Part shown: positions 1 to 14,115 of the stretch, piece after piece
Layout: each line of letters starts with the position of its first letter
Numbering within the stretch: position 1 is the stretch's first letter
NCBI GenBank assembly: GCA_902516685.1
Contig: CABXZJ010000026.1
Location: 1-14,115, forward strand
Direction of reading: 5' to 3'
Source: an uncultured Formosa sp.
Lineage (GTDB): Bacteria; Bacteroidota; Bacteroidia; Flavobacteriales; Flavobacteriaceae
Length of the DNA stretch: 14,115 nucleotides
The notes under the pieces: model-generated
What the model was told of the DNA's origin: nothing
Databases searched by the model: none
The model's input: the letters and a program-made list of their open reading frames with translations, nothing else
Position numbers and translations under genes: made by a program

Positions 1-80
1 TCCTGGTCTGGGACTTGAGCCGAAGTTGTGTAAAAACTCAGAGTAATTAGGGCTGTTATAATTAAATTTATTTTTTTCAT
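1..80 (-). CDS. Exported protein, N-terminal fragment (runs off the left edge)
   Basis: Reading leftward from an ATG at 80-78, about 26 codons are visible before the window ends. They begin MKKINLIITALITLSFYTTS and continue AQVPDQ, a classic signal peptide: a lysine-rich start, a hydrophobic stretch, then an A-Q junction typical of signal peptidase I sites in Flavobacteriia. The mature part is outside the window, so the function cannot be told. The ATG overlaps the TGA stop of the upstream minus-strand gene in an ATGA arrangement (80-77). This implies the two are cotranscribed and probably translationally coupled, and that this product is exported alongside the T9SS-tailed protein. It is too short to be picked up by a length-filtered gene finder. 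Confidence 0.7.
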   Translation of the reverse strand, partial: MKKINLIITALITLSFYTTSAQVPDQ

Positions 81-781
81 TTTTTGAGTATTTTAAAATT
101 GGTTTTATTTTTATTAGTGTCTTCAACAATCAAAAAATAAAGTCCTTTTTCTAAACTAGAAACATTGATAGTTTTTGAATTTGACGTTAAGACTAATTGT
201 CCAAGAATGTTGTAGAGATAATTGGTTGAGCTTTCAAAGCCTGATATACTTAAATTTGTAGAGACAGGATTAGGGAAAACGCTAATGCCAAAATTAGAAT
301 TATCATCAATTGATAAATTATTTGCTGCGCCAGCCGTAAGCTTACTCATAGGGACTGTACCGTCGAAACTATAAGTTACAGTAAAGTCATCTGAGTCTTG
401 ATCTGGATATTCTGACCATGTTGATGTTGTATCATCAAAAATATATAATGCAGCATTATGAGATACATCATTCATAATTGATTCATCATAATTAAAAACT
501 ACAACTCCAGAGAAAGTTGTCAAGGCTTCTTGAAAACCAAAAACTTTGCTCATTGTTTCTGTATTATTCACAGTTTCCGGTGAATTAGTTAGAGAAATTT
601 GATTTGTATTATCTCCACTTAAAATATAATCTGAGTCAGGGGTTAATTCCATCCCAGCAATATTTAAAGTTGCTCCCTGTGATATAACCAATGAATTGCC
701 CGAAGCAATCGTTATTGGAAATGAGTCCTGAGCAATTAAAACAAATGGAAACATTAATAAAAAGGTAATGTATTTTGTCAT
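77..781 (-). CDS. Secreted protein with T9SS type A C-terminal sorting domain
   Basis: The product is 234 residues. Residues 1-18 are a signal peptide (MTKYITFLLMFPFVLIA, then Q). Residues about 19-155 are a Thr/Ser/Asn/Asp-rich, beta-prone region that I cannot assign to an enzyme family. Residues about 160-234 are a type IX secretion sorting tail: F-P-N-P-V, then L-Y-N-I-L-G-Q-L-V, then a G-L-Y-F-L-I motif and a lysine-rich end (NFKILKK). The protein should therefore cross the outer membrane through the T9SS and be anchored to or released from the surface. Known T9SS cargo includes adhesins and enzymes; nothing here shows catalysis. Its TGA stop overlaps the start of the next minus-strand gene. 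It is divergent from susC and probably not part of the mannose operon. Confidence 0.8.
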   Translation of the reverse strand: MTKYITFLLMFPFVLIAQDSFPITIASGNSLVISQGATLNIAGMELTPDSDYILSGDNTNQISLTNSPETVNNTETMSKVFGFQEALTTFSGVVVFNYDESIMNDVSHNAALYIFDDTTSTWSEYPDQDSDDFTVTYSFDGTVPMSKLTAGAANNLSIDDNSNFGISVFPNPVSTNLSISGFESSTNYLYNILGQLVLTSNSKTINVSSLEKGLYFLIVEDTNKNKTNFKILKK

Positions 782-934: not shown

Positions 935-3900
935 TTGATTAATTTTTTAAAAAATAAACTAACTGTTTTTTTCTTTTTATCATTTTTTTTTGCTCATTCT
1001 CAAAATTTTACAGTAAAAGGGGTAGTTGAGGATTCAAATGGAGTACCAGTAGCGGGGGCTAATATCATCGAAAAAGAAAATCCACTTAATGGCTCAGTAA
1101 CTGATTTTGATGGAGTATTTACAATAATGGTTTCTGAGAACTCAAATTTGGAAATCAGTTATGTGGGATATGAGACAAAGGAAATTTATGTTGATGGAAG
1201 AAATGAATTAAAAATAATCATTGTAGAAGACTTAAAAAGTCTTGATGAAGTTACCATTGTTGCATATGGGAAACAGAAAAAATCAAGTGTTGTAGCAGCT
1301 GTATCAACAATTGACCCTACAGAGCTGAAGCTCCCAACGAGTAATCTGACAACTTCTTTCGCAGGGAGGATAGCAGGTGTGATTGCTTACCAAAGAAGTG
1401 GTGAACCTGGTCGTGATAATGCCGAATTTTTTATCCGTGGTGTCAGCACTTTTGGATATGCTAGATCTCCACTAATATTAATAGATGGAATTGAAACAAC
1501 ATCTACAGACTTGGCAAGACTCCAGCCAGATGATATTGCTAGCTTTTCAATTATGAAAGATGCTACAGCGACGTCCTTATTTGGAGCCAGAGGTGCTAAT
1601 GGGGTTATACTTGTAACAACAAAAGAAGGAAAAGAAGGGGTAGTTAAAATTAATGTTAGGTATGAGAAGTCTTATTCTGCAGCAACAAAATCTCTAAGTA
1701 TTGCAGACCCCATCACATACATGAGACTTCACAATGAAGCCCAAACTACAAGAAATCCACTAAGTGGACGAATATACTCGTTAGAGAAAATATTAATATC
1801 CCAGGACCCAAACAGAAATAAAATGGCTTATCCAACAGTGAATTGGTTTGATGAGTTACTAGAAGAATATACATTAAATAGTCGTTTTAATTTTAGTCTT
1901 AGTGGTGGTGGAAAAATAGCTAGATATTATTTAGCTTCAACTGTTAATACTGACAACGGTAATTTGAAAGTTGACCCCAGAAATAACTTTAATAACAACA
2001 TAAATTTTAAAAGAGTTTCTCTCAGATCTAATATTAACGTTAATCTAACAAAATCTACTACAGTTGCGTTAAAGTTTAATGGCAATTTTGATGATTACAA
2101 TGGCCCTTTGGATGGGGGTGCTGAAGTTTATCAAAAAGCTATGAAAGCCAATCCTGTTCTATATCCTAAGTTTTATGAACCCGATTTACAATTTCAAAAT
2201 TCAAATCATATTTTATTTGGGAATGCTGGTCAATTTGGAGATTTCCTTAATCCATATGCAGATTTAATGCGAGGCTATAAAGATGAGAGTTACAATAATT
2301 TTTTGGCAACTGTAGAGATTAAGCAAGACCTTGGCTTTATTGCAGAGGGGTTAAAATTTAGAATACTTGGAAATACAGCTAGATATTCTTTTTATAATTT
2401 AGAAAGGAAATATGAACCGTTTTATTATTCTCTTGGCAATTATGATTTTCAAAGTGATTTGTACACTCTTATTGCCCTAAATCCAAATCAAGGGACAGAG
2501 TATTTAGATTACAGCGAAGGAAATAAAATTATTACTAATTCAACCTACTTTGAAGGTGCATTAAATTATAATAAAAGCTTTAAACAAAATCATGAAATAA
2601 CAGCAATGTTGATTGGTATAATGCGAGAACTAAAATATGCTAACGCAGGAAACCTCCAAGAATCATTGCCATACAGGAATTTGGGTCTTTCAGGAAGGTT
2701 TACCTATGCATACGGTGATAAATATTTTACAGAATTTAATTTTGGATATAATGGCTCTGAGAGATTTGCAAAGTCTCAAAGGTTTGGGTTTTTTCCTTCG
2801 TTTGGACTTGGGTGGTTAGCCTCAAACGAAAAATTTATGGATCCTTTTACTAATATTGTTGATAATTTAAAATTTAAAGGAACTTATGGCTTAGTTGGAA
2901 ATGATCAAATTGGTAGCGCCAGTGATAGATTTTTTTATATCTCACAAGTAAATCTAAGTGATGGTTCAATGGGGTCACCTTTTGGGCAGGAATTTGGAAA
3001 CTATATTAATGGAGTTAGTATTGATAGATATGCTAATGATCGGATTACTTGGGAGAAAGCTCGAATGATGAATCTGGGAATCGAGATCGGTTTATTTAAT
3101 AAAATTGATATCCAGGCAGATTATTTTACAGAGTACAGGTCAAATATATTGATGGATAGAGCTCAAATACCAGCTACAATGGGATTACAATCTCCACTTA
3201 GGGCAAATGTTGGTGAGGCTTCTTCAAATGGTTACGAAATTACAATAGACTATAATGATCAACTAAATAAGGATCTTTATGTTGGTTTTAGAGCAAACTT
3301 TTCATATGCTGATAGTAAATATGAAGTATATGAAGAGTTAGATTATCAAAATGCTGGTTTACCATGGCGCTCTAGAATAGGGCTAAATTTATCACAGCCC
3401 TACGGATACATTGCCGAAAGACTTTTTATAGACGAAGCGGATGTCGCTAATTCACCTCTACAGACGTTTGGTGATTATATGGCTGGAGATATTAAGTATA
3501 AAGATATAAACAATGATGGTATAATTGATATTAATGATGAAGTTCCAATAGGATACCCTACAACTCCAAAAATAATTTATGGTTTTGGGCTTTCCTCTAA
3601 ATATAAAAGTTTTGATTTTTCTTTTTTCTTTCAAGGTTCTGCAAAGTCATCTTTTTTTGTAGATGCATATAATTCCTCACCTTTTATAGATACATATGGT
3701 GGAAAAATTGGAAATAATGCATTATTGAATGCTTGGGCTAATGACCATTGGTCGGAAAATGATAGAAACTTATATGCAGCCTGGCCCAGACTTTCAAGTC
3801 AATTAATAGACAATAACAATAGAAATAGCACATGGTGGCTTAGAGACGGTACTTTTTTGAGATTAAAATCAGTTGAATTTGGTTATTCAATTGAAAATAA

Positions 3901-4063
3901 AGCTGCTTCAAAAATTGGTTTAACCTCTGTTAGATTTTATGTTACAGGGACTAACTTATTAACATTTAGTAAATTTAAACTCTGGGATGTTGAAATGGGT
4001 GGAAATGGACTAGGATATCCAATACAGTTGGGGTATAACTTTGGAATTAATTTAAATTTATAA
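935..4063 (+). CDS. susC: SusC/RagA-family TonB-dependent outer-membrane oligosaccharide transporter
   Basis: The product is 1042 residues, normal for SusC. Residues 1-22 form a signal peptide with a very phenylalanine-rich core (VFFFLSFFFAHS, then Q). Residues about 25-98 are a carboxypeptidase-regulatory-like N-terminal extension. A TonB box region follows at about 100-117 (DEVTIVAYGKQKK), then the plug domain with the family signature F-A-G-R-I-A-G-V and S-P-L-I-L-I-D-G-I. The rest is a 22-strand-type barrel. A calcium-loop-like D-I-N-N-D-G-I-I-D-I-N-D lies at about 857-868, as in many SusC proteins. It would import glycan fragments under the SusD lid. No ATG exists between the in-frame stop at 878-880 and the signal peptide, so TTG at 935 is the best start; no Shine-Dalgarno is seen. 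susD follows after 4 bases. Confidence 0.95.
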   Translation: MINFLKNKLTVFFFLSFFFAHSQNFTVKGVVEDSNGVPVAGANIIEKENPLNGSVTDFDGVFTIMVSENSNLEISYVGYETKEIYVDGRNELKIIIVEDLKSLDEVTIVAYGKQKKSSVVAAVSTIDPTELKLPTSNLTTSFAGRIAGVIAYQRSGEPGRDNAEFFIRGVSTFGYARSPLILIDGIETTSTDLARLQPDDIASFSIMKDATATSLFGARGANGVILVTTKEGKEGVVKINVRYEKSYSAATKSLSIADPITYMRLHNEAQTTRNPLSGRIYSLEKILISQDPNRNKMAYPTVNWFDELLEEYTLNSRFNFSLSGGGKIARYYLASTVNTDNGNLKVDPRNNFNNNINFKRVSLRSNINVNLTKSTTVALKFNGNFDDYNGPLDGGAEVYQKAMKANPVLYPKFYEPDLQFQNSNHILFGNAGQFGDFLNPYADLMRGYKDESYNNFLATVEIKQDLGFIAEGLKFRILGNTARYSFYNLERKYEPFYYSLGNYDFQSDLYTLIALNPNQGTEYLDYSEGNKIITNSTYFEGALNYNKSFKQNHEITAMLIGIMRELKYANAGNLQESLPYRNLGLSGRFTYAYGDKYFTEFNFGYNGSERFAKSQRFGFFPSFGLGWLASNEKFMDPFTNIVDNLKFKGTYGLVGNDQIGSASDRFFYISQVNLSDGSMGSPFGQEFGNYINGVSIDRYANDRITWEKARMMNLGIEIGLFNKIDIQADYFTEYRSNILMDRAQIPATMGLQSPLRANVGEASSNGYEITIDYNDQLNKDLYVGFRANFSYADSKYEVYEELDYQNAGLPWRSRIGLNLSQPYGYIAERLFIDEADVANSPLQTFGDYMAGDIKYKDINNDGIIDINDEVPIGYPTTPKIIYGFGLSSKYKSFDFSFFFQGSAKSSFFVDAYNSSPFIDTYGGKIGNNALLNAWANDHWSENDRNLYAAWPRLSSQLIDNNNRNSTWWLRDGTFLRLKSVEFGYSIENKAASKIGLTSVRFYVTGTNLLTFSKFKLWDVEMGGNGLGYPIQLGYNFGINLNL

Positions 4064-4067
4064 GTAT

Positions 4068-6011
4068 ATGAAAAAGTATTTAATAATAATATTTATATTA
4101 TTAACTTCTTGCGAGAAAGACTACTTGGATGTCGTTCCGGATAATGTAGCAACAATTGATTTGGCATTTAACACTAGATCTACAGCTGAAAATTTCCTTT
4201 CAACCTGCTATACATATATACCTGAGCATGCAAATGTTGAGCAAAATTTTTCTCTGCTAGCTGGCGACGAAATTTGGTATTATGCAGAAAATGATTTCTA
4301 TATGAACAATGAAACAAGTTTTCGATTGGCAAAAGGAATGCAAAATTCTGCAAGCCCTTATCTAAATTACTGGGAAGGCGGGCGTGGAGCTCCACATAGC
4401 CTATTTAATGCCTTGAGAGATTGTAATATTTTTCTAGAAAATTTAGTTGAGGTTCCAGGTCTCGATGAAAGTGAACGTTTAAAATGGCTTGATGAAGTTA
4501 AAGTTCTTAAGGCATTTTATCACTTTTGGCTAATGCAAATGTATGGTCCAATACCAATTATTGATGAAAATATTCCAGTTGGAGCAAGCCCTGAAGAAAC
4601 AAATGTAAAAAGAGAATCCATAGATGATATTGTTAGTTATCTGGTTCAGATTCTTGATGAGGTCATTGAGTCTGAAAATCTACCAGGCCTTGTAAATTAT
4701 ATCTATACTGATATGGGTAGAATAACGATGCCAATCGCTAAAGCATTAAAAGCCAAAATATTGACATTAGCCGCAAGTCCTATTTTTAATGGTAATACTG
4801 ACTTTAGTGAATTAACAGATAATTTAGGTAATAAACTTGTAAGCCAAGTATATGATGCTCAAAAATGGGTTTACGCAAGAGATGCTCTTTTTGAGGCTAT
4901 AGAAAGCGCTCATGCAAATGGTCACCAACTTTATGAGTTTAGTCAACAGATTCCAATTATTGGTGGTATTAATGAAGAGATCACTAGAGAATTAAGTTTA
5001 AGAGCAGCCATAACTGAACCTTTTAACACAGAGATAATATGGGCATTCGCACCTGAATGGACAGGTGATTTACAAATGTGGTGTCAGCCAAGATGGACTG
5101 CTGATCACTCAGCATTGTTTGGTTACACCAAAAAATCACACGCTCCAACATTGAATATGGTGGAAACATTTTACACTAATAATGGTGTGCCAATTGAAGA
5201 GGATATTACTTGGGATTATGGTAACAGATATAATGTAATTCAAACCCCTATTTTTGATTCAAACAATAACAACTTTCATGAATTTTATATTGAGGATGAT
5301 TATTATACTGCTAAACTTCACACTTACAGAGAACCTAGATTTTATTCATCCATTGGATTTGACGGAGGTAAATGGTTTTCATTAGAGACTGAAAATATAA
5401 ACTTTATTCCTCATTTGAATGCTAAATCAGGAGCTGCTTCTGGTAAACAAGGTTTTGAAATATATTCAATAACAGGATTTTTCGCAAAAAAGTTGGTTCA
5501 TTACGAAAATATTATTTCTTTGCAAGGATCTACCATTCAAGGATATTCTTTCCCAATTATTAGACTTTCCGATTTATATTTGATGTATTCTGAAGCGTTA
5601 AATGAAACTAAACCAGCTCCAGATAATGAAGTTTACGAATACATACAAAGAGTTAGGACTAGAGCAGGTCTTGATCCCGAAGGAGATATTCTAAATACCT
5701 GGCAGATGTATTCAAGTAATCCATCAAAACCGATGACTAAGGACGGAATGAGAAAAATTATTCAGCAAGAAAGAATGATTGAGCTTGCACTTGAGGGGCA
5801 TAGATATTGGGATATTAAAAGATGGAAATTAGCTACAGAATATTTTAATAAACCAATACAAGGTTGGAATATTTTTAGACCGGATGTAGATGGTTTTTAT
5901 GAAGTTGAAAACATATTTTATAGAAACTATTCAACAAAGGACTATTTATGGCCAATTAGCCAAAATGAATTACTAAGAAATCCAAACTTAATTCAAAATC
6001 CAGGATGGTAA
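4068..6011 (+). CDS. susD: SusD/RagB-family surface glycan-binding lipoprotein
   Basis: The product is 647 residues. The N-terminus is a lipoprotein signal with the acylated cysteine at residue 15 (ILLTSCEKDYLD), and L-D-V-V-P is the usual SusD motif just after it. The N-terminal SusD-like, TPR-containing half covers about residues 20-290. The C-terminal SusD/RagB domain includes I-R-L-S-D-L-Y-L-M-Y-S-E-A-L-N, R-V-R-T-R-A-G-L and E-R-M-I-E-L-A-L-E-G-H-R-Y-W-D-I-K-R-W. The C-terminus (N-P-N-L-I-Q-N-P-G-W) is the standard ending. SusD proteins cap the extracellular face of SusC and deliver oligosaccharide. At 647 residues it is somewhat longer than many homologues (about 500-600). It pairs with the SusC directly upstream, and the next gene starts 12 bases after its stop. 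Confidence 0.95.
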   Translation: MKKYLIIIFILLTSCEKDYLDVVPDNVATIDLAFNTRSTAENFLSTCYTYIPEHANVEQNFSLLAGDEIWYYAENDFYMNNETSFRLAKGMQNSASPYLNYWEGGRGAPHSLFNALRDCNIFLENLVEVPGLDESERLKWLDEVKVLKAFYHFWLMQMYGPIPIIDENIPVGASPEETNVKRESIDDIVSYLVQILDEVIESENLPGLVNYIYTDMGRITMPIAKALKAKILTLAASPIFNGNTDFSELTDNLGNKLVSQVYDAQKWVYARDALFEAIESAHANGHQLYEFSQQIPIIGGINEEITRELSLRAAITEPFNTEIIWAFAPEWTGDLQMWCQPRWTADHSALFGYTKKSHAPTLNMVETFYTNNGVPIEEDITWDYGNRYNVIQTPIFDSNNNNFHEFYIEDDYYTAKLHTYREPRFYSSIGFDGGKWFSLETENINFIPHLNAKSGAASGKQGFEIYSITGFFAKKLVHYENIISLQGSTIQGYSFPIIRLSDLYLMYSEALNETKPAPDNEVYEYIQRVRTRAGLDPEGDILNTWQMYSSNPSKPMTKDGMRKIIQQERMIELALEGHRYWDIKRWKLATEYFNKPIQGWNIFRPDVDGFYEVENIFYRNYSTKDYLWPISQNELLRNPNLIQNPGW

Positions 6012-6023
6012 AATTTAATTATT

Positions 6024-7247
6024 ATGAAACCAGTTTTTAAATATATGAGTAAGTATCCGGTTAGTTGCATATTTATTGCTTTAATAACCCTAATATTAAG
6101 CTGTACAGAAGATAGTCATAGTGCATATGGAGGTGATTCAATTGCACCAGGGAAAGTAATAGTGAATTCAGTAGAAAACACACCGGGAGGAGCAGTTATT
6201 AGATTTACTCCACCAATTGACTCTGATCTTTTGTACATAAAAGGAAAATATCGAGATGAAAATGACATTCAAAAGGAGGTTATTGTATCATCTTACATTG
6301 ATAGTTTAAATATTCTTGGATTCGGATTAACGGGGGATTACCCTGTTGATGTTACTGCAATTGATATTGGTGATAATGAGTCTGAAAAAGAAACTGTAAT
6401 TATATCCCCTTTAGAAGCTCCAATTCATGCAATATTAGAATCAATTGAAGGGTCCCAAGACTTTGGAGGCATTAATATTTCTTATCTAAACCCAACAAGA
6501 GCTGAAATATCTTTAAACATGTCTGTTGAAGAGGATAATGGTGAAATTGTATTTAAAGAATCATTTTTTACAAGTCAAGCTAATAGTTCATATAGTTTTA
6601 GAGGATACGATGCTGAGCCAACAGTTTTTGTAATTTATGTTGAAGACAGATGGGGAAATCAAACTTTGAGAAAAAGTTTTGAAATTACTCCACTTCAAGA
6701 TGAATTTTTAGACAAAGGCTTTTTTTCAATAGTACCAATGCCAGGTGATGAAAGTTTTAGTGAATATGGTTTTTCAGCAAATCAAATTTGGGATGGTTCT
6801 TGGAGTAGTCAATGGAACTGTGGGCACACAAATTTTTTATCTCTTCCACATCAATTAACATTAGACCTAGGTCAAACAGCTACTCTAAATAGGTTCAAAT
6901 TATATCAAAGAGGTGGTAGTGAGTTGTATAAACATGGTAATCCTAGGGTTTTTAGGATGTATGGTAGATCTAATTTAGATAATTTACCTATATATGATCC
7001 GGATGATCCTGGAGATGGTTGGATATTTTTAGGAGAGTTTGAATCATTTAAGCCTTCTGGTTTACCTCCAGGGTCTAATACAGACGAGGATTATCTATAT
7101 CAAGACAATGGAGAGGATTTTGTTTTTAGTTTTGATTCTCAACAGCACAATTTGAGATATATAAGATTGGTTAATATAGAATCATGGAACAATCAAATGG
7201 TTACCGTAATTGGGGAGTTATCTTTCTGGGGTAGTATTATTCAATAA
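6024..7247 (+). CDS. DUF4959/DUF5126/DUF5000-type surface lipoprotein (SusE-position glycan-binding protein)
   Basis: The product is 407 residues. A lipobox ends at Cys27 (TLILSC); an in-frame ATG at codon 8 is an alternative start. Three parts follow and match by pattern the architecture common behind susD in mannose- and glycan-targeting PULs. Residues about 28-130 are a DUF4959-like Ig-type domain (A-P-G-K-V, then G-G-A-V-I-R-F-T-P-P, and D-L-L-Y-I-K-G-K-Y). Residues about 131-231 are DUF5126-like (D-R-W-G-N near the end). Residues about 232-407 are a DUF5000/discoidin (F5/8 C) beta-sandwich with I-W-D-G-S-W, P-H-Q-L-T-L-D-L-G and R-Y-I-R-L-V. The expected role is binding substrate at the cell surface; no catalytic motif is visible. 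Domain names are from recognition, not a search. Confidence 0.85.
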   Translation: MKPVFKYMSKYPVSCIFIALITLILSCTEDSHSAYGGDSIAPGKVIVNSVENTPGGAVIRFTPPIDSDLLYIKGKYRDENDIQKEVIVSSYIDSLNILGFGLTGDYPVDVTAIDIGDNESEKETVIISPLEAPIHAILESIEGSQDFGGINISYLNPTRAEISLNMSVEEDNGEIVFKESFFTSQANSSYSFRGYDAEPTVFVIYVEDRWGNQTLRKSFEITPLQDEFLDKGFFSIVPMPGDESFSEYGFSANQIWDGSWSSQWNCGHTNFLSLPHQLTLDLGQTATLNRFKLYQRGGSELYKHGNPRVFRMYGRSNLDNLPIYDPDDPGDGWIFLGEFESFKPSGLPPGSNTDEDYLYQDNGEDFVFSFDSQQHNLRYIRLVNIESWNNQMVTVIGELSFWGSIIQ

Positions 7248-7252
7248 CCGAT

Positions 7253-9001
7253 ATGAGATATTTAAAACACATAAAAATTATTTTATCGATAAGTATAATA
7301 GCAGTTTGTATTGGTTGTAATGATATGAATAGAATCCATGAGCAATATTTAGGTGGAGAAATAATATATTCAGGAAAGCTAGATACACTCCTTGTGAGGC
7401 CAGGGATGTATAGAGCTCAACTAGAGGGATATACACATCTACTAGGAAATTCAAATAAAGTAATCATCGAGTTTGATAATCGAACCGAAGTTTTTGATAT
7501 AGACAATAATATTTCTGAAATTTATTCTGTTATAATTGAAAATCTTGAAGAAGATTTTTATGAATTTGATGTAACTACCCAAGACCAAGAGGGAAATGTA
7601 TCAGTACCCCAAACGGTAAGCGGTTATGCCGTTGGTGATATCTTTGTCGAGGACCAATCTCCCAGAGAAATAAATGATTTTACTTTTGAAACAGATGGTA
7701 ATTTTGTAAACTTTTTTGGGAATGCTGAATCTGAATTTGTTATTTATACAACTGTAGATTATGAAAATGAAAATGGTAGTGTAACAAGAGATACTTTGTT
7801 TTTTGAAGACAACAGAATAGAATTAATAAATTTCTTACCACAAGGCAACATCACCACTAGGTCATATATACAATCTGGACTTAGAGGAATTGACACAGTA
7901 GCTCTGGAGGAGGTTGACTATTTATTACCAGACGTTCCTTACTCTGAATTGTCAAAAGATTTTATTCAATTAGTTGATATGCCCGGAGATAATAACGGAG
8001 AATATGTTGGAGCTGATCCTAAGCAGTTTTTATTTGATGGTGATGGATTATGGAATGGAAATAATCAAGCAACATATTATTCCCAGCCTGGAAATGTACC
8101 ACATCATTTTACAATTGATTTGGGAGTAAATACAGTTTTAAGGAAAGTCAAATTAGAAATGCCAGATGCCCAAACCAATAATCTAAATAATGCAACAAGA
8201 GTTCAAATATGGGGTAGACAAGACCTTTTATTTGCTGAGACAAGCAATAGCACTGAGAGTGATTTAAACACTGCAGGTTGGATCTTAATGGAGGATGTAA
8301 ATATTGATGGCGCGAATCAAAGTACTCACAATTTTTTAATCAGCCCTACCACTAGTATTAGATACGTTAAATATAGAGTTGTATCGACAGTAGGGAATAA
8401 TCACTCTCAACTTACTGAAATGACATTTTACGGGCAAAATACAGAACCCATTAATCACGATAAATCTTTATTTTCGATAGCTTCAATGCCAAGTGATAAC
8501 CCTGGTACATTCTACAGTGCCAGTCCAAGTGATTATTTATGGGATAATAATGCTATTTGGTCTGGAAGCGATGTCTATGGGTATCATTCTGGGGAGAATG
8601 CAGTACCCGGTCATTTTACGATAGATTTGGGAGTCATTACTCAACTTAGAGTTGCTAAATTTCATTTCAGAGATCCTTCCAACTACTCAGGAAATAATCC
8701 TACAGAACTAGAGATTTGGGGAAGACTAGATTTGGTTGATGCTAGCATTTTACCTAGTTTTCAGTCTAATGGAAACAATGTAATCTCTAGTCCTACAAGC
8801 TCGACCAGCTTAATTGATGCAGGCTGGATACTACTGTCCTCACAAAATATTGAAGGTGCAAACCTTCAATCTACGGAATATGAAGTTCAACCAAATGAAA
8901 TGGTTCGGTATTTAAAAATCAGGTATGTTAATACTGTTGCTGGTAGTGGATGTCAATTTATAGAAGTTAATTTTGAAGGGAATGGTGCAATCATTGAATA
9001 A
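7253..9001 (+). CDS. DUF4998-type lipoprotein with two tandem discoidin-like (DUF5000-type) domains
   Basis: The product is 582 residues with a lipoprotein signal, Cys22 (CIGCNDM). Residues about 23-230 resemble DUF4998 (H-E-Q-Y-L-G-G-E-I-I-Y-S-G-K, then V-R-P-G-M). Two homologous discoidin-like modules follow at about 236-397 and 402-580. Each has a D/S-M-P-G/S-D start, an F/W-D-aromatic segment around a W-N-G or W-S-G, H-F-T-I-D-L-G-V, I-W-G-R-x-D-L, A-G-W-I-L and R-Y-x-K. Proteins of this type are expected on the cell surface as glycan-binding partners of SusCD. The second module makes it longer than single-module relatives I know. Its end overlaps the first GH92 gene by 20 bases, suggesting translational coupling. 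Confidence 0.82.
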   Translation: MRYLKHIKIILSISIIAVCIGCNDMNRIHEQYLGGEIIYSGKLDTLLVRPGMYRAQLEGYTHLLGNSNKVIIEFDNRTEVFDIDNNISEIYSVIIENLEEDFYEFDVTTQDQEGNVSVPQTVSGYAVGDIFVEDQSPREINDFTFETDGNFVNFFGNAESEFVIYTTVDYENENGSVTRDTLFFEDNRIELINFLPQGNITTRSYIQSGLRGIDTVALEEVDYLLPDVPYSELSKDFIQLVDMPGDNNGEYVGADPKQFLFDGDGLWNGNNQATYYSQPGNVPHHFTIDLGVNTVLRKVKLEMPDAQTNNLNNATRVQIWGRQDLLFAETSNSTESDLNTAGWILMEDVNIDGANQSTHNFLISPTTSIRYVKYRVVSTVGNNHSQLTEMTFYGQNTEPINHDKSLFSIASMPSDNPGTFYSASPSDYLWDNNAIWSGSDVYGYHSGENAVPGHFTIDLGVITQLRVAKFHFRDPSNYSGNNPTELEIWGRLDLVDASILPSFQSNGNNVISSPTSSTSLIDAGWILLSSQNIEGANLQSTEYEVQPNEMVRYLKIRYVNTVAGSGCQFIEVNFEGNGAIIE

Positions 9002-9803
9002 AAGCATATATCTATCGCTATTATTTTGTCTTGTTTTTTTAAAATCACACTCGCAAGATTTACATAATTATGTAAATACAACAATAGGATCTAAAGACAA
9101 TGGATTGAGCAGTGGATATACATTTATAGGAGCAACCTATCCATTTGGAATGCTTCAATTTACACCCAGTTTTTTTTCTCCAAATAAAGGTTTTGTTGTT
9201 ACTCAGCTTAGCGGTGCAGGCTGTCCAAATATGGGCAATTTTCCTGTTATTGCCACCTCTAACGAAATCAAAAAATCTCCAAACAACATGGAGTCATTTG
9301 ATCGCTATAAGTCAATTAAAGACTCCAAAGCTGGTTTTTTGTCTGTAGAGATGAACGATGGAACAGAAATTAGTGTTACTACCACTAAAAGAACTGCAAT
9401 TGCAAAATTTAAATTTAACTCTAATGACAAGGGTTCAATAATTATTGGATCTGGTATTAACTCAACTAAAGTTAAAGATGCATTTGTTAAAAACACTTCT
9501 TTAACGAGCTGTGAAGGTTATGCAACTGGTGGAGACTTTTGTGGAACAGATACAAATTACCCTGTATTTTTTTATGTGGAATTTGACAGGCCATCATTGA
9601 ATCATAAAGTTTGGAAAAAGAATAAAATTTCAAAAAATAAATCAATAGATGGACCAAATTCTGGTACCATTTTCACATTTGATACTTCAAAAAATAAAGA
9701 AGTTAAATATAGAATTTCTATTTCATTCGTTTCAGTTGAAAATGCTAAAATAAATATGAAATCGGAGGACGTTGGATTTAATTTTCAGTCCTATTCATCC
9801 TAA
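8982..9803 (+). pseudogene. GH92 alpha-mannosidase 1, N-terminal fragment (frame broken near 9780)
   Basis: The ATG at 8982 gives a signal peptide ending K-S-H-S-Q. TTG at 8973 (in frame, upstream) and TTG at 8994 are alternatives. The mature part opens with the GH92 N-domain signature Y-V-N-T-T-I-G-S, then G-A-T-Y-P-F-G-M-L-Q-F-T-P, and runs to S-V-E-N-A-K-I-N-M, the usual end of the N-terminal beta-sandwich. After about nucleotide 9778 the reading frame (F-N-F-Q-S-Y-S-S-stop) no longer matches the family. The family continues in another frame, but about 36-39 residues that should connect the domains are absent. As sequenced, this fragment lacks the whole catalytic (alpha/alpha)6 barrel and should be inactive. 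The matching C-terminal part follows directly. Confidence 0.8.
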
Positions 9804-11010
9804 TGTTGTAAGTGACGCTAATGGGGAATATCTAGGTGCAGATTTTAAAATTCAAAAGGTAACGAATGGAAGAGATCAGTACAGCTCTTTTAGCGTTTGG
9901 GATACTTACAGGACACAAGCACAATTGTTGGCTTGGTTGTTTCCAGAACAAAGTAGTGATATGATGCAATCTTTGGTAGATTTTGCCGATCAGTCAGGGG
10001 GTTATGGCAGATGGATTTTAGCAAACATTGAAACAGGTATTATGCAGGGAGACCCTACACCTATTTTAATCTCAAATTCGTATTGTTTTGGTGCCAAAGA
10101 CTTCGATGTTCAAAATGCATTTAAGCACATGAAAAGTGGGGCCACAATTCCTAGATTGAGGTCTCAAAATCAGGAAATTAGGCCTTATTTGGAAGAATAC
10201 ATAAAGTATGGTCATACTTTCGCTTCCATGCATCTAGAATATACGTCTTCCGATTTTGCCATTGCTCAATTTGCATTACAAGCCTTAAATGATAAAGATC
10301 AATATAATTTTTTCCTCAAAAGATCTAAAAATTGGCAAAATATATATAATTCAAAAATTAAATGGCTTAATTCCAAATATCCCAACAATATTTGGAAAGA
10401 TATTAACCATGATTGGAGAGAAGGTACTTATAAGAATTATTTTTGGATGGTGCCCTATGATTTAGACGGATTGATTGAAAAAATTGGAGGTAAAAAAAAT
10501 GCCCAAAAAAGGTTAGATTCTCTTTTTGTTAGGTTGGATGCAAGATATGAAGATGAATGGTTCGCCTCGGGGAATGAACCAGATTTTCATGTTCCATGGG
10601 TTTACAATTGGACCGATGAACCTGAGAAAACATCCAAAACAATCAACAGAATCCACAGTGAGATGTATCAAAATTCTCCATCTGGTTTACCTGGTAATGA
10701 TGACCTTGGAACAATGGGGTCTTGGTATGTTTTTTCTTCCATAGGACTTTACCCTGTCATACCAGGTGTTGGGGGTTTTGCAGTGAATTTACCAAAATTT
10801 CAAAAAATAAGTATTCGAACTCCTGATAATATTTTAACCATCCAAAAGAAAAACAAAGTTGTAGATATAATAAAATCACTAAATGTTAACGGTACAGAAT
10901 ATCATAGTACGTGGTTAAGCTTTGATAAAATCAAAAATGGTGGAGATATTATATTCAATGGTGATATAAAAAATAAATGGATAATTAAAGAGAATCCGCC
11001 TAACTACTAA
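9772..11010 (+). pseudogene. GH92 alpha-mannosidase 1, C-terminal catalytic fragment
   Basis: This frame carries the catalytic domain of the same gene. It becomes family-like at S-P-I-H-P-N-V (about 9784) and has S-V-W-D-T-Y-R-T-Q, G-G-Y-G-R-W-I-L-A-N, E-T-G-I-M-Q-G-D-P, R-E-G-T-Y-K-N-Y-F-W, S-G-N-E-P-D-F-H and G-L-P-G-N-D-D-L-G-T-M-G-S-W-Y. All the conserved acidic motifs of GH92 are retained, so the ancestral enzyme was probably active. The nominal TTG at 9772 is not a credible start: the first codons are mid-domain and there is no signal peptide. Compared with GH92 2, the loop after G-N-E-P is D-F-H rather than S-H-H, which may mean a different linkage preference (inference). The next gene starts after 14 bases. 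Confidence 0.82.
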
Positions 11011-11024
11011 TAAAAAAATCACAC

Positions 11025-13286
11025 ATGAGAATAAAACAATTAACATATACTTTATTAGCTATATTAATTAGTATTTCGATTTTTAGCTTTAAGGGCAAAA
11101 TAGAAAATAATTATGTACAATACGTGGACCCTTTTATTGGCTCAGGTGGACATGGACACGTTTTTGTCGGAGCAAATGTTCCATTTGGTGGCGTACAAGT
11201 TGGACCCACAAATTTCAATAAAGGTTGGGACTGGTCTTCTTCCTACCATTATTCTGACAGTATTGTAAAAGGATTCTGTCATCTAAATGTTAGTGGCACA
11301 GGTATGTCAGATTTAGGAGAATTAACCGTCATGCCTGTAAACGGTCCACTCAAGATAAATGCTGGGACACAAGAAAATCACATGAAGGGCTATTCATCCC
11401 TATACAGAAAAGGAAAAGAACAGGTTTCACCGGGTTATTATAGTGTCTTTTTAGAGCGTTACAATATTCAGGTAGAGTTGACGGCTTCTAAAAGAGCAGG
11501 CCTTCACCGGTATACCTACCCAAAATCGATGGATTCTAGAATTATTATTGACTTAGGAGAAGGGAGTGCCGATAGACCCACAGAAACTTTCTTAAGAAAA
11601 GTAAATGACACTTTATTTGAAGGCTATAGATTTTCCACCGGATGGGCAGTAGATCAAAGAGAATTCTTTTCTGTTGTAACATCAAAACCTGTAGAGAATT
11701 TTTTATTGTATGATAGAGGAAAAAAAATCAATAAGAATGAAAAAAAGGGTAAATATGTAAAAGGTTTTTTAGAATTCACAACAGCCAAAGATGAAGAAGT
11801 GTTTTTTAAAATGGGTGTTTCAACCGTTAGTATGAAAAATGCTTTAGAAAACTTAATTCACGAGATCCCACATTGGGATTTTGAAGAAGTTCACAATAAT
11901 GCTATCTCTGAATGGAATAGTGAATTGTCAAAAATTAAAATAAAAACAAAAGATATTAAGAAGAAGAAAATATTCTACACAGCCATGTACCACACGATGA
12001 TTGCACCTAATTTATATCATGATGTTAATGGAGAATATAGAGGAACTGATAAAAAAGTATACTCAGATAATACTTTCACAAATTATACGCTTTTTTCTCT
12101 TTGGGATACATACAGAGCGGCACATCCGCTTTATACAATAACCCATCCAGAAAGAGTGAGTGACATGGTCAATTCTATGCTCAAAATATTTGATCATCAG
12201 GGTAAGCTACCTGTTTGGCACCTCCGTGGGAATGAAACCAACACAATGCCCGGTTACAGCGCTATACCCGTGGTTGTTGATGCGGTTTTAAAAGGGTTTG
12301 ACATAGACAAAGAAGAAGCCTTTAATGCGGTTAAAAAAAGTGCTACAGGTTATTTTGAGCCCGGAGTAAAGGAATTAATGAATCTTGGATACATTCCTTC
12401 TGATTTAATGGTGGAGTCTGTGGCTAGTTCTATGGAATACGCTATTGGTGATTGGGGAATTGCTCAATTAGCAAACGAGATGAACAAGAAAGATGATTAT
12501 CATTACTTTTTAGATCGATCAAAAGCTTACAAAACATATTTTGATGAGGAAACAAAATTTATGAGAGGTAGATTATCTAATGGTGAATGGAGAACTCCAT
12601 TTGATCCTGTTTCCGCACAACATAGAATTAATGATTATTGCGAGGGGAATGCATGGCAATATCTATGGCTTGTGCCTCAAGACCCTGAAGGTTTAATTGC
12701 GCTACTTGGTGGGGATGAAAAATACATAGAAAAACTTGACACCTTGTTTAGTATGTCATCAGAACTTGAAGAGGGTTCATCAATGGATATTACAGGCTTG
12801 ATCGGCCAGTATGCACATGGAAATGAACCAAGTCACCACACCACTTATATGTATGCTTACGCAGGGGCGCAACACAAGATTCCCAAAAATGTTAGATATA
12901 TTTTAAGTGAATTATACAATGACCAGCCAGACGGACTCAGTGGTAATGAAGATTGTGGACAAATGTCTGCCTGGTATATTTTTTCTTCAATAGGCTTCTA
13001 CCCTGTCAATCCTTCTAATGGAGCTTATGTTTTTGGAAGCCCTATTTTCGATGAAGTTTTAATAGAACTTCAAGGGGATAAAAACTTTAAAATTATAACT
13101 GAAAATAATTCAGAAAAAAACATATACATAGAATCCATATCATTAAATGGTAAGAATTACAACAATTCTTACATAACTCATAAGGACATTACAAATGGTG
13201 GCGAATTAAAATTTGTTATGAGTGATAAGCCAAACAAAGAGTTTGGTAAAGATTATAAAAACAGACCAAAATCTATAGTATATTAA
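11025..13286 (+). CDS. GH92 exo-alpha-mannosidase 2 (intact)
   Basis: The product is 753 residues, normal for GH92. It has an N-terminal signal segment (about 1-25, MRIKQLTYTLLAILISISIF) without a lipobox cysteine, so it is probably periplasmic. The N-terminal beta-sandwich starts Y-V-D-P-F-I-G-S-G-G-H-G-H at about 33. The catalytic barrel carries W-D-T-Y-R at 360-364, Y-C-E-G-N with Glu540, H-G-N-E-P-S-H-H with Glu601 and the His pair 604-605, and G-N-E-D-C-G-Q with Asp643. GH92 enzymes are calcium-dependent, inverting exo-alpha-mannosidases, and these motifs carry the acidic and metal-site residues. Linkage specificity (1,2, 1,3, 1,4 or 1,6) cannot be fixed from sequence alone. It is the only complete GH92 in the window. 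Confidence 0.95.
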   Translation: MRIKQLTYTLLAILISISIFSFKGKIENNYVQYVDPFIGSGGHGHVFVGANVPFGGVQVGPTNFNKGWDWSSSYHYSDSIVKGFCHLNVSGTGMSDLGELTVMPVNGPLKINAGTQENHMKGYSSLYRKGKEQVSPGYYSVFLERYNIQVELTASKRAGLHRYTYPKSMDSRIIIDLGEGSADRPTETFLRKVNDTLFEGYRFSTGWAVDQREFFSVVTSKPVENFLLYDRGKKINKNEKKGKYVKGFLEFTTAKDEEVFFKMGVSTVSMKNALENLIHEIPHWDFEEVHNNAISEWNSELSKIKIKTKDIKKKKIFYTAMYHTMIAPNLYHDVNGEYRGTDKKVYSDNTFTNYTLFSLWDTYRAAHPLYTITHPERVSDMVNSMLKIFDHQGKLPVWHLRGNETNTMPGYSAIPVVVDAVLKGFDIDKEEAFNAVKKSATGYFEPGVKELMNLGYIPSDLMVESVASSMEYAIGDWGIAQLANEMNKKDDYHYFLDRSKAYKTYFDEETKFMRGRLSNGEWRTPFDPVSAQHRINDYCEGNAWQYLWLVPQDPEGLIALLGGDEKYIEKLDTLFSMSSELEEGSSMDITGLIGQYAHGNEPSHHTTYMYAYAGAQHKIPKNVRYILSELYNDQPDGLSGNEDCGQMSAWYIFSSIGFYPVNPSNGAYVFGSPIFDEVLIELQGDKNFKIITENNSEKNIYIESISLNGKNYNNSYITHKDITNGGELKFVMSDKPNKEFGKDYKNRPKSIVY

Positions 13287-13293
13287 ATTTTAT

Positions 13294-14031
13294 ATGAAGC
13301 GTTTAGTATTATTTTTTGTAATTTTTTTTAATGGGAATTTTTTTGCCCAAAGTGACAAAGATTTTACTAAGTATGTGAATCCATTGATTGGAAGCGATTC
13401 ATCTCACGAACTTTCTAAAGGCAATACTTATCCTGCGATTGCCCTGCCTTGGGGAATGAATTTTTGGACACCTCAAACTGGAAAGATGGGGGATGGTTGG
13501 ATTTATACACATAAAAATTCAGGACTTGTCGGGATACGACAAACCCATCAGCCAAGCCCATGGATTAATGATTACGGAGCGTTCTCTATTATGCCAACAA
13601 CAGGAGTACTTAAGGTACTGGAAAAGCAAAGAAGGGCAAACTACAAGAACCAAATCGTTAAGCCACATCACTATAAGGTTAAATTTGTTGATTCTGACAT
13701 AGATTTAGAAGTTTCCCCTACAAGGAGTTCGGCCCATTTTAAGCTTAGTTCTGGTACTCAAAAAAAATTAAATATTATCATCGATGCTTTTTTTAAAGGG
13801 TCAAGTGTTGAAATAAATTCCGAAAAAAATACAATCTATGGTATTTCAAAAAACAACTCTGGTGGAGTCCCAGAAAATTTCTCAAATTATTTTATAATTG
13901 AGTTTAAAACCCCTTTTAATAGCTATGGAACATGGAACGGATCTGGGGAATTATTTAAAAACGATAAGCTAAATGGTGACCACTCGGGCAACCAACCACT
14001 TTCCTTATATGGGTTAACCATAATGCCTTGA
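13294..14031 (+). pseudogene. GH92 alpha-mannosidase 3, N-terminal part, interrupted by an inverted segment
   Basis: The start is ATG at 13294, 7 bases after GH92 2. A signal peptide ends F-F-A-Q (residue 19). The GH92 N-domain follows: Y-V-N-P-L-I-G-S, G-N-T-Y-P-A-I-A-L-P-W-G-M and Q-T-H-Q-P-S-P-W-I-N-D-Y-G. Family-like coding runs to about N-G-D-H (13972-13983). From there to the TGA at 14029-14031 the residues (S-G-N-Q-P-L-S-L-Y-G-L-T-I-M-P) are an artefact of reading the antisense of a later GH92 segment. The true gene should be about 700-750 codons, so roughly the first third is seen here. It belongs to a different GH92 branch from the two upstream copies. Whether the gene is broken in the cell or only in this assembly is open. 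Confidence 0.85.
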
Positions 14032-14115
14032 ATAATTTCACCCATTTTTTCAGGGTATAACAAATTATAAAAAGGGAATACTGCACGAAAAGTATCCCAA
14101 AATCCATTATCTGTA
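13980..14115 (-). pseudogene. Inverted internal segment of GH92 alpha-mannosidase 3
   Basis: Read on the minus strand from 14114 to 13980, 45 codons are open and match the GH92 catalytic domain. They include T-D-N-G-F-W-D-T-F-R, then Y-P-E-K-M-G-E-I-I-Q-G, and finally Y-K-E-S-G-W-L-P-E-W. The same motifs occur on the plus strand in GH92 2 as W-D-T-Y-R (residues 360-364) and L-P-V-W. The segment has no start codon context and begins at the window edge. In an intact gene it would lie about 100 residues or more downstream of the 13980 point and on the plus strand. It is therefore a piece of the same gene, or of a close paralogue, in the wrong orientation. It is short but the motif match is strong. 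Confidence 0.85.

What the first reader, a model, noticed from the sequence alone, without database searches (positions are those of the whole stretch)
13960..14115. Strand switch inside the third GH92 gene (inversion junction near 13980)
Seen: plus-strand GH92 coding stops being family-like after N-G-D-H at about 13983, and the minus strand of 13980-14114 encodes the WDTFR-to-GWLPEW part of a GH92 catalytic domain. Family order places this part about 100 residues further downstream in the same orientation. The bases around 13975-13983 (TGGTGACCA, a near-palindrome) make sense in both readings, so the join has short microhomology. A forward-then-backward copy with a skipped interval is the pattern known for multiple displacement amplification chimeras, and it sits at the window edge, where such joins are common in assemblies. 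A real inversion is the alternative.
Basis: partly seen in the sequence, partly recalled or inferred. Interest (0 to 1): 0.72.

Follow-up and report, generated by a model that had tools for sequence, protein, structure and literature searches.

The report
Inverted chimera at a contig's end
The last 139 bases of this marine bacterial sequence are a piece of the same sugar-cutting enzyme gene glued on backwards, most likely by a copying error in the laboratory rather than by the bacterium.

Summary
Compared with close relatives (L001, G004, G010), the third GH92 gene is colinear up to 13982. Then 13977-14115 matches the opposite strand of the same gene, from 499 bp further on, at 96% identity. 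The two matches share six bases, TGACCA (13977-13982), not the nine proposed. The last 139 bases of the 499-bp interval are present backwards; the first 360 are absent. In 80 of 80 related loci the two parts lie in normal order on one strand, none inverted within 3 kb. G004, 96% identical, has an intact 765-codon gene. Breakpoints carry no conserved inverted repeat, so a programmed inversion is unlikely. Inverted order, short complementary overlap and proximity fit the commonest class of multiple-displacement-amplification chimeras (PMC1855051). Other library chimeras and a private real inversion cannot be excluded without reads. A second junction was found: a 110-bp frameshifting deletion in the first GH92 gene at 9792-9799, absent from four relatives. 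Verdict: real in the letters, very probably not a biological feature.

The parts
13294..13982 (+). N-terminal part of the third GH92 gene, colinear with relatives up to the join
   Evidence: Pfam PF17678; 89% DNA identity to L001 and 88% to G010 over 9792-13982, 96% to G004 over 12882-13982, where its contig ends
13977..13982 (.). six-base overlap TGACCA shared by both sides of the inverted join
   Evidence: forward match ends at 13982 and inverted match starts at 13977 in L001, G004 and G010; G004 has TGACCA on both sides
13977..14115 (-). inverted piece of the GH92 catalytic domain (TDNGFWDTFRAV...GWLPEWS), joined from 499 bp further on in the gene
   Evidence: Pfam PF07971 positions 83-126; 96% identity to L001:11188-11050 minus; 46 of 46 residues identical to P0122, P0123 and P0191
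14029..14031 (+). stop codon of the 245-residue plus-strand frame, created by the inverted piece (not a native gene end)
   Evidence: ORF list; the gene is 765 codons in L001 and in G004
9792..9799 (.). second junction: 110-bp deletion with frameshift in the first GH92 gene, at near-matching 8-base stretches (TATT exact)
   Evidence: offset changes by 110 against L001, G010, L002 and G007; intact 712-aa counterpart P0247

Best explanation
The end of the window is an artificial inverted chimera. A DNA strand ending in TGACCA (or, read on the other strand, TGGTCA) came loose, paired through six bases with the complementary site about 0.5 kb away on a same-sense single strand of the same GH92 gene, and was extended backwards. 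The chimeric molecule was then built into the end of the assembled sequence. Shown: the geometry, the six-base overlap, and the normal order in the relatives examined. Inferred: that this happened in vitro, most likely in whole-genome amplification by phi29 polymerase. Which of the two ends primed cannot be read from the sequence.
For: Inverted 96% match 499 bp downstream in the same gene, with the same interval of 499 in L001, G004 and G010. Normal order in 80 of 80 loci, none inverted within 3 kb. Intact 765-codon gene in G004, 96% identical. Six-base overlap, 0.24% by chance. The frame is destroyed at once (stop at 14029-14031). The chimeric 245-residue frame has no near-identical entry among the 120 listed of 1606 protein hits (best 90% over 72%), and its tail is not in the 361 protein files held. 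The inverted tail is 139 bases at the very end of the window, about one short read (inference). PMC1855051 (parts 1-2 of 4 read): 85% of 475 MDA chimeras inverted, 83% of these under 10 kb apart, 93.5% of the near inverted ones with complementary bases at the join, about one junction per 22 kb.
Against: No reads, coverage or method of DNA preparation are available, and the window's own genome is not held. Whether 14115 is the real contig end is not told. The second junction (9792-9799) is a direct deletion, a type that makes up only 11 of 475 MDA chimeras when under 10 kb (PMC1855051), so it does not strengthen the MDA reading and could point to a locus that is really damaged.
Confidence: 0.87

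Rival explanations
1. A library-preparation or PCR chimera without MDA: single-stranded ends pair through a short inverted match during end repair and are filled in, and a few such reads extend the contig end. (This 0.35 is a share of the 0.87 given to an artefact of any kind.)
For: Same geometry; such artefacts are described for sonicated and enzymatic libraries (PMC10908179, passages seen), and that paper speculates that more distant sites able to pair would also give chimeric reads. The tail is shorter than a typical short read (inference).
Against: The cases shown in the passages seen concern inverted repeats or palindromes in the reference; here the sites are 499 bp apart with six matching bases. 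It cannot be separated from MDA by sequence.
Confidence: 0.35
2. A real, strain-private inversion of the 499-bp segment bounded by TGACCA/TGGTCA, inactivating the third GH92 gene in this cell line.
For: The two breakpoints sit at a short inverted match, and another GH92 gene in the same locus is also broken (9792-9799), as in a decaying locus.
Against: 80 of 80 related loci are uninverted. G004 (96%) and P0123 (96.5/100% protein) have the gene whole. Only one breakpoint is visible, and the window ends before the other would appear.
Confidence: 0.08
3. A programmed (site-specific, phase-variable) inversion switching the GH92 gene on and off.
For: Only that invertible DNA is common in Bacteroidota (recalled, no call).
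Against: The longest exact inverted match between the surroundings (about 45 bases either side) of the two breakpoints is 5-7 bases in four relatives (the left site in L002 is extrapolated). TGACCA is not kept: the forward side is GGACCA in L001 and G010 and TGAGCA in L002. None of the ten translations scanned matched a recombinase in Pfam at E 0.001.
Confidence: 0.02

Closest known systems
Inverted chimeras of multiple displacement amplification (Lasken and Stockwell 2007, PMC1855051)
   Same: Inverted second segment, skipped interval, under 10 kb apart, short complementary overlap (6; published range 2-21).
   Different: Amplification of this DNA is not documented here; seen once, in an assembled sequence rather than in reads.
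End-repair/fragmentation chimeric reads (PDSM model, PMC10908179)
   Same: Sequence switches to the opposite strand at complementary stretches.
   Different: Cases in the passages seen are inverted repeats or palindromes in human libraries; here six bases, 499 bp apart.
GH92 gene of a marine Formosa-type polysaccharide utilization locus
   Same: Both pieces are ordinary GH92, 96.5/100% identical in protein to the whole protein P0123.
   Different: Here cut and partly inverted.

Membership tests
MDA inverted chimera | second segment in inverted orientation relative to the genome | tested here: met
   (against relatives; the window's own genome is not held)
MDA inverted chimera | segments less than 10 kb apart with a skipped interval | tested here: met
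   499 bp in L001, G004 and G010; first 360 bp not represented
MDA inverted chimera | complementary overlap of 2-21 bases at the join | tested here: met
   TGACCA, 6 bases
MDA inverted chimera | DNA was amplified with phi29 polymerase; junction rare among reads | not testable with these tools
   no reads, no sample record; window genome not held
Site-specific invertible DNA | conserved inverted repeats at both ends | tested here: not met
Site-specific invertible DNA | both orientations in one population | not testable with these tools
   no reads; 80 of 80 loci of other genomes in one orientation
GH92 | N-terminal and catalytic Pfam domains | tested here: met
   each piece matches its own domain; whole gene in L001 and P0123 matches both

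The most novel reading that the evidence does not exclude
A real inversion mediated by six matching bases has switched off a GH92 gene in a marine flavobacterium whose first GH92 gene in the same locus is also broken by deletion, so that the mannan locus is decaying or varies within the population.
Probability: 0.08. Interest if true: 0.3.

Novelty: not a real feature. Interest (0 to 1): 0.06.

Why it matters
It matters for data hygiene: the 245-residue protein predicted here should not enter databases as a distinct GH92-like protein, and the sequence should be trimmed at the join (13976-13982). If the inversion were real it would be a case of microhomology-mediated gene inactivation in a polysaccharide locus.

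Tried and rejected
Rejected: chance match of the minus strand (E 5.8e-60); phase-variable inversion (no inverted repeats); a nine-base palindromic overlap.

First taken and then corrected: the second junction at 9792-9799 looked like an 8-base direct repeat (so also in my note). In L001 and G010 the left copy reads TATTTATC against TATTCATC on the right, so only TATT is exact. P0247 has Leu where the window reads Ser, consistent with the left copy of the relatives. The 8-base chance figure therefore does not apply; for 4 or more shared bases it is 2.4% of 300,000 random direct joins. The junction may equally be a real slippage deletion.

Of limited use: 149 of 360 proteins match both pieces and all 149 have them in order, 112-132 residues apart. 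A translated protein cannot show an inverted piece, so this only fixes the distance. The counts that bear on the inversion are those of the 80 DNA loci. One search looked only at the three nearest catalytic matches per locus; one search repeated the count with all of them and gave the same 80 of 80 and no inverted match within 3 kb. Elsewhere in those loci, 2 of 160 catalytic matches lie on the minus strand, more than 3 kb from the gene; I did not look at these two.

Paper searches on library chimeras and contig ends gave nothing on point in their listings; one search gave PMC1855051, PMC9723552 and PMC10908179 and PMC6218980.

Full report
Observation. The window carries a polysaccharide-utilization-type gene set: SusC-like 935-4063, SusD-like 4068-6011, two proteins with DUF5000 domains (6024-7247, 7253-9001), and three GH92 genes, the first split in two frames. 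The third GH92 gene starts at 13294. Its plus-strand frame of 245 residues ends at 14031, but the family match stops at residue 231 (GH92N domain). The minus strand of 13975-14114 is open for 46 residues and matches positions 83-126 of the GH92 catalytic profile (E 5.8e-12).

Comparison with relatives. The nearest, L001 (NYVA01000035.1, titled MAG Formosa sp. CPC323), is colinear with the window at 84% (3404-9799) and 89% (9792-13982), apart from the deletion described below. Then 13977-14115 matches L001:11188-11050 on the opposite strand at 96%. The more distant L002 shows the same relation. Among 11 genomes of the genus of G001, 4 had a match to 8973-14115. G001 (=L001), G004 and G010 contain both parts in normal order. 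G007, more distant, has short matches (69% and 85%) in the same normal arrangement. G004 covers only 12882-13982 and the tail, because its contig ends there; its gene is open for 765 codons. The interval between the breakpoints is 499 bp in L001, G004 and G010. Its last 139 bases are present backwards and the first 360 are absent.

Generality. In 80 of 80 loci the catalytic part lies on the same strand as the N-terminal part, 337-406 bases downstream of the end of the forward match, and in none is it inverted within 3 kb. The closest full-length proteins are P0123 (96.5% to the forward piece, 100% to the inverted piece) and P0122 (91.7% and 100%), each 765 residues. The inverted piece is thus ordinary GH92 of this lineage.

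The join. G004, 96% identical here, reads AAATGGTGACCATGT on the forward side and ACTTGACCACTCGGG on the inverted side; the window reads AAATGGTGACCACTCGGG. The overlap is therefore TGACCA. Of 400,000 random inverted joins of sites 100-999 bp apart on L001, 0.24% had 6 or more shared bases. The surroundings hold no exact inverted match beyond 5-7 bases, and the six bases are not kept in L001, G010 or L002, so recombinase-driven inversion is not supported.

Mechanism. PMC1855051 (parts 1 and 2 of 4 read) reports 475 mapped MDA chimeras: 406 inverted, 337 of those under 10 kb apart, overlaps of 2-21 bases in 76.8%, and about one junction per 22 kb. The paper explains them by displaced 3' ends priming on nearby displaced 5' strands. 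The join here has the features that sequence can show. Which end primed cannot be told, since the double-stranded product reads as a downstream switch on one strand and as an upstream one on the other (inference). Library end-repair chimeras (PMC10908179, passages) and palindromic chimeras of whole-genome amplification (PMC6218980, passages) are neighbouring artefacts. The shortness of the tail at the window's end suits a chimeric read or two extending a contig end, but it is not known that 14115 is the contig end, so this is inference only.

Second junction. The first GH92 gene changes frame at 9792-9799, where 110 bp present in L001, G010 and L002 and G007 are missing. P0247, 712 residues, is 99.6% identical to the piece before and 98.3% to the piece after and carries both GH92 domains; its cluster has 197 member sequences and 4 contigs, the longest 193,559 bp. 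So an intact counterpart exists in what is probably the same species (inference from identity). Only TATT is exactly shared at the join. Direct short-range joins are rare in MDA (11 of 475, PMC1855051), so this may be a real deletion or another artefact; I leave it open.

Verdict. The best reading is an in-vitro inverted chimera (0.87 for an artefact of any kind, MDA somewhat likelier than other library steps). A real private inversion is 0.08 and a programmed one 0.02. Without reads the inverted join should not be pursued as a biological feature.

Noticed in passing
window 9792-9799 (first GH92 gene, frames 8973-9803 and 9772-11010): First GH92 gene is split by a 110-bp deletion with frameshift; L001, G010, L002 and G007 lack the deletion and a 99.6/98.3% identical whole protein (P0247) exists.
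   Followed up: yes
P0003 (389 aa, contig of 1,377 bases) and P0017 (185 aa): Two database GH92 proteins end in tails that do not look like the family (seen by eye), possibly further chimeric or frameshifted contig ends.
   Followed up: no
window 935-13982: SusC/SusD-like pair, two genes with DUF5000 domains and three GH92 genes in a row; resembles GH92-rich loci of marine Formosa and Polaribacter proposed for glucuronomannan (PMC9723552, passages).
   Followed up: partly
window 77-781, minus strand: Divergent gene for a 234-residue protein with a Por secretion-system C-terminal sorting domain.
   Followed up: no
G004:C41, end at 69626 (window 12882): The closest relative's contig ends inside its second GH92 gene, so it cannot inform on the deletion in the first.
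   Followed up: no
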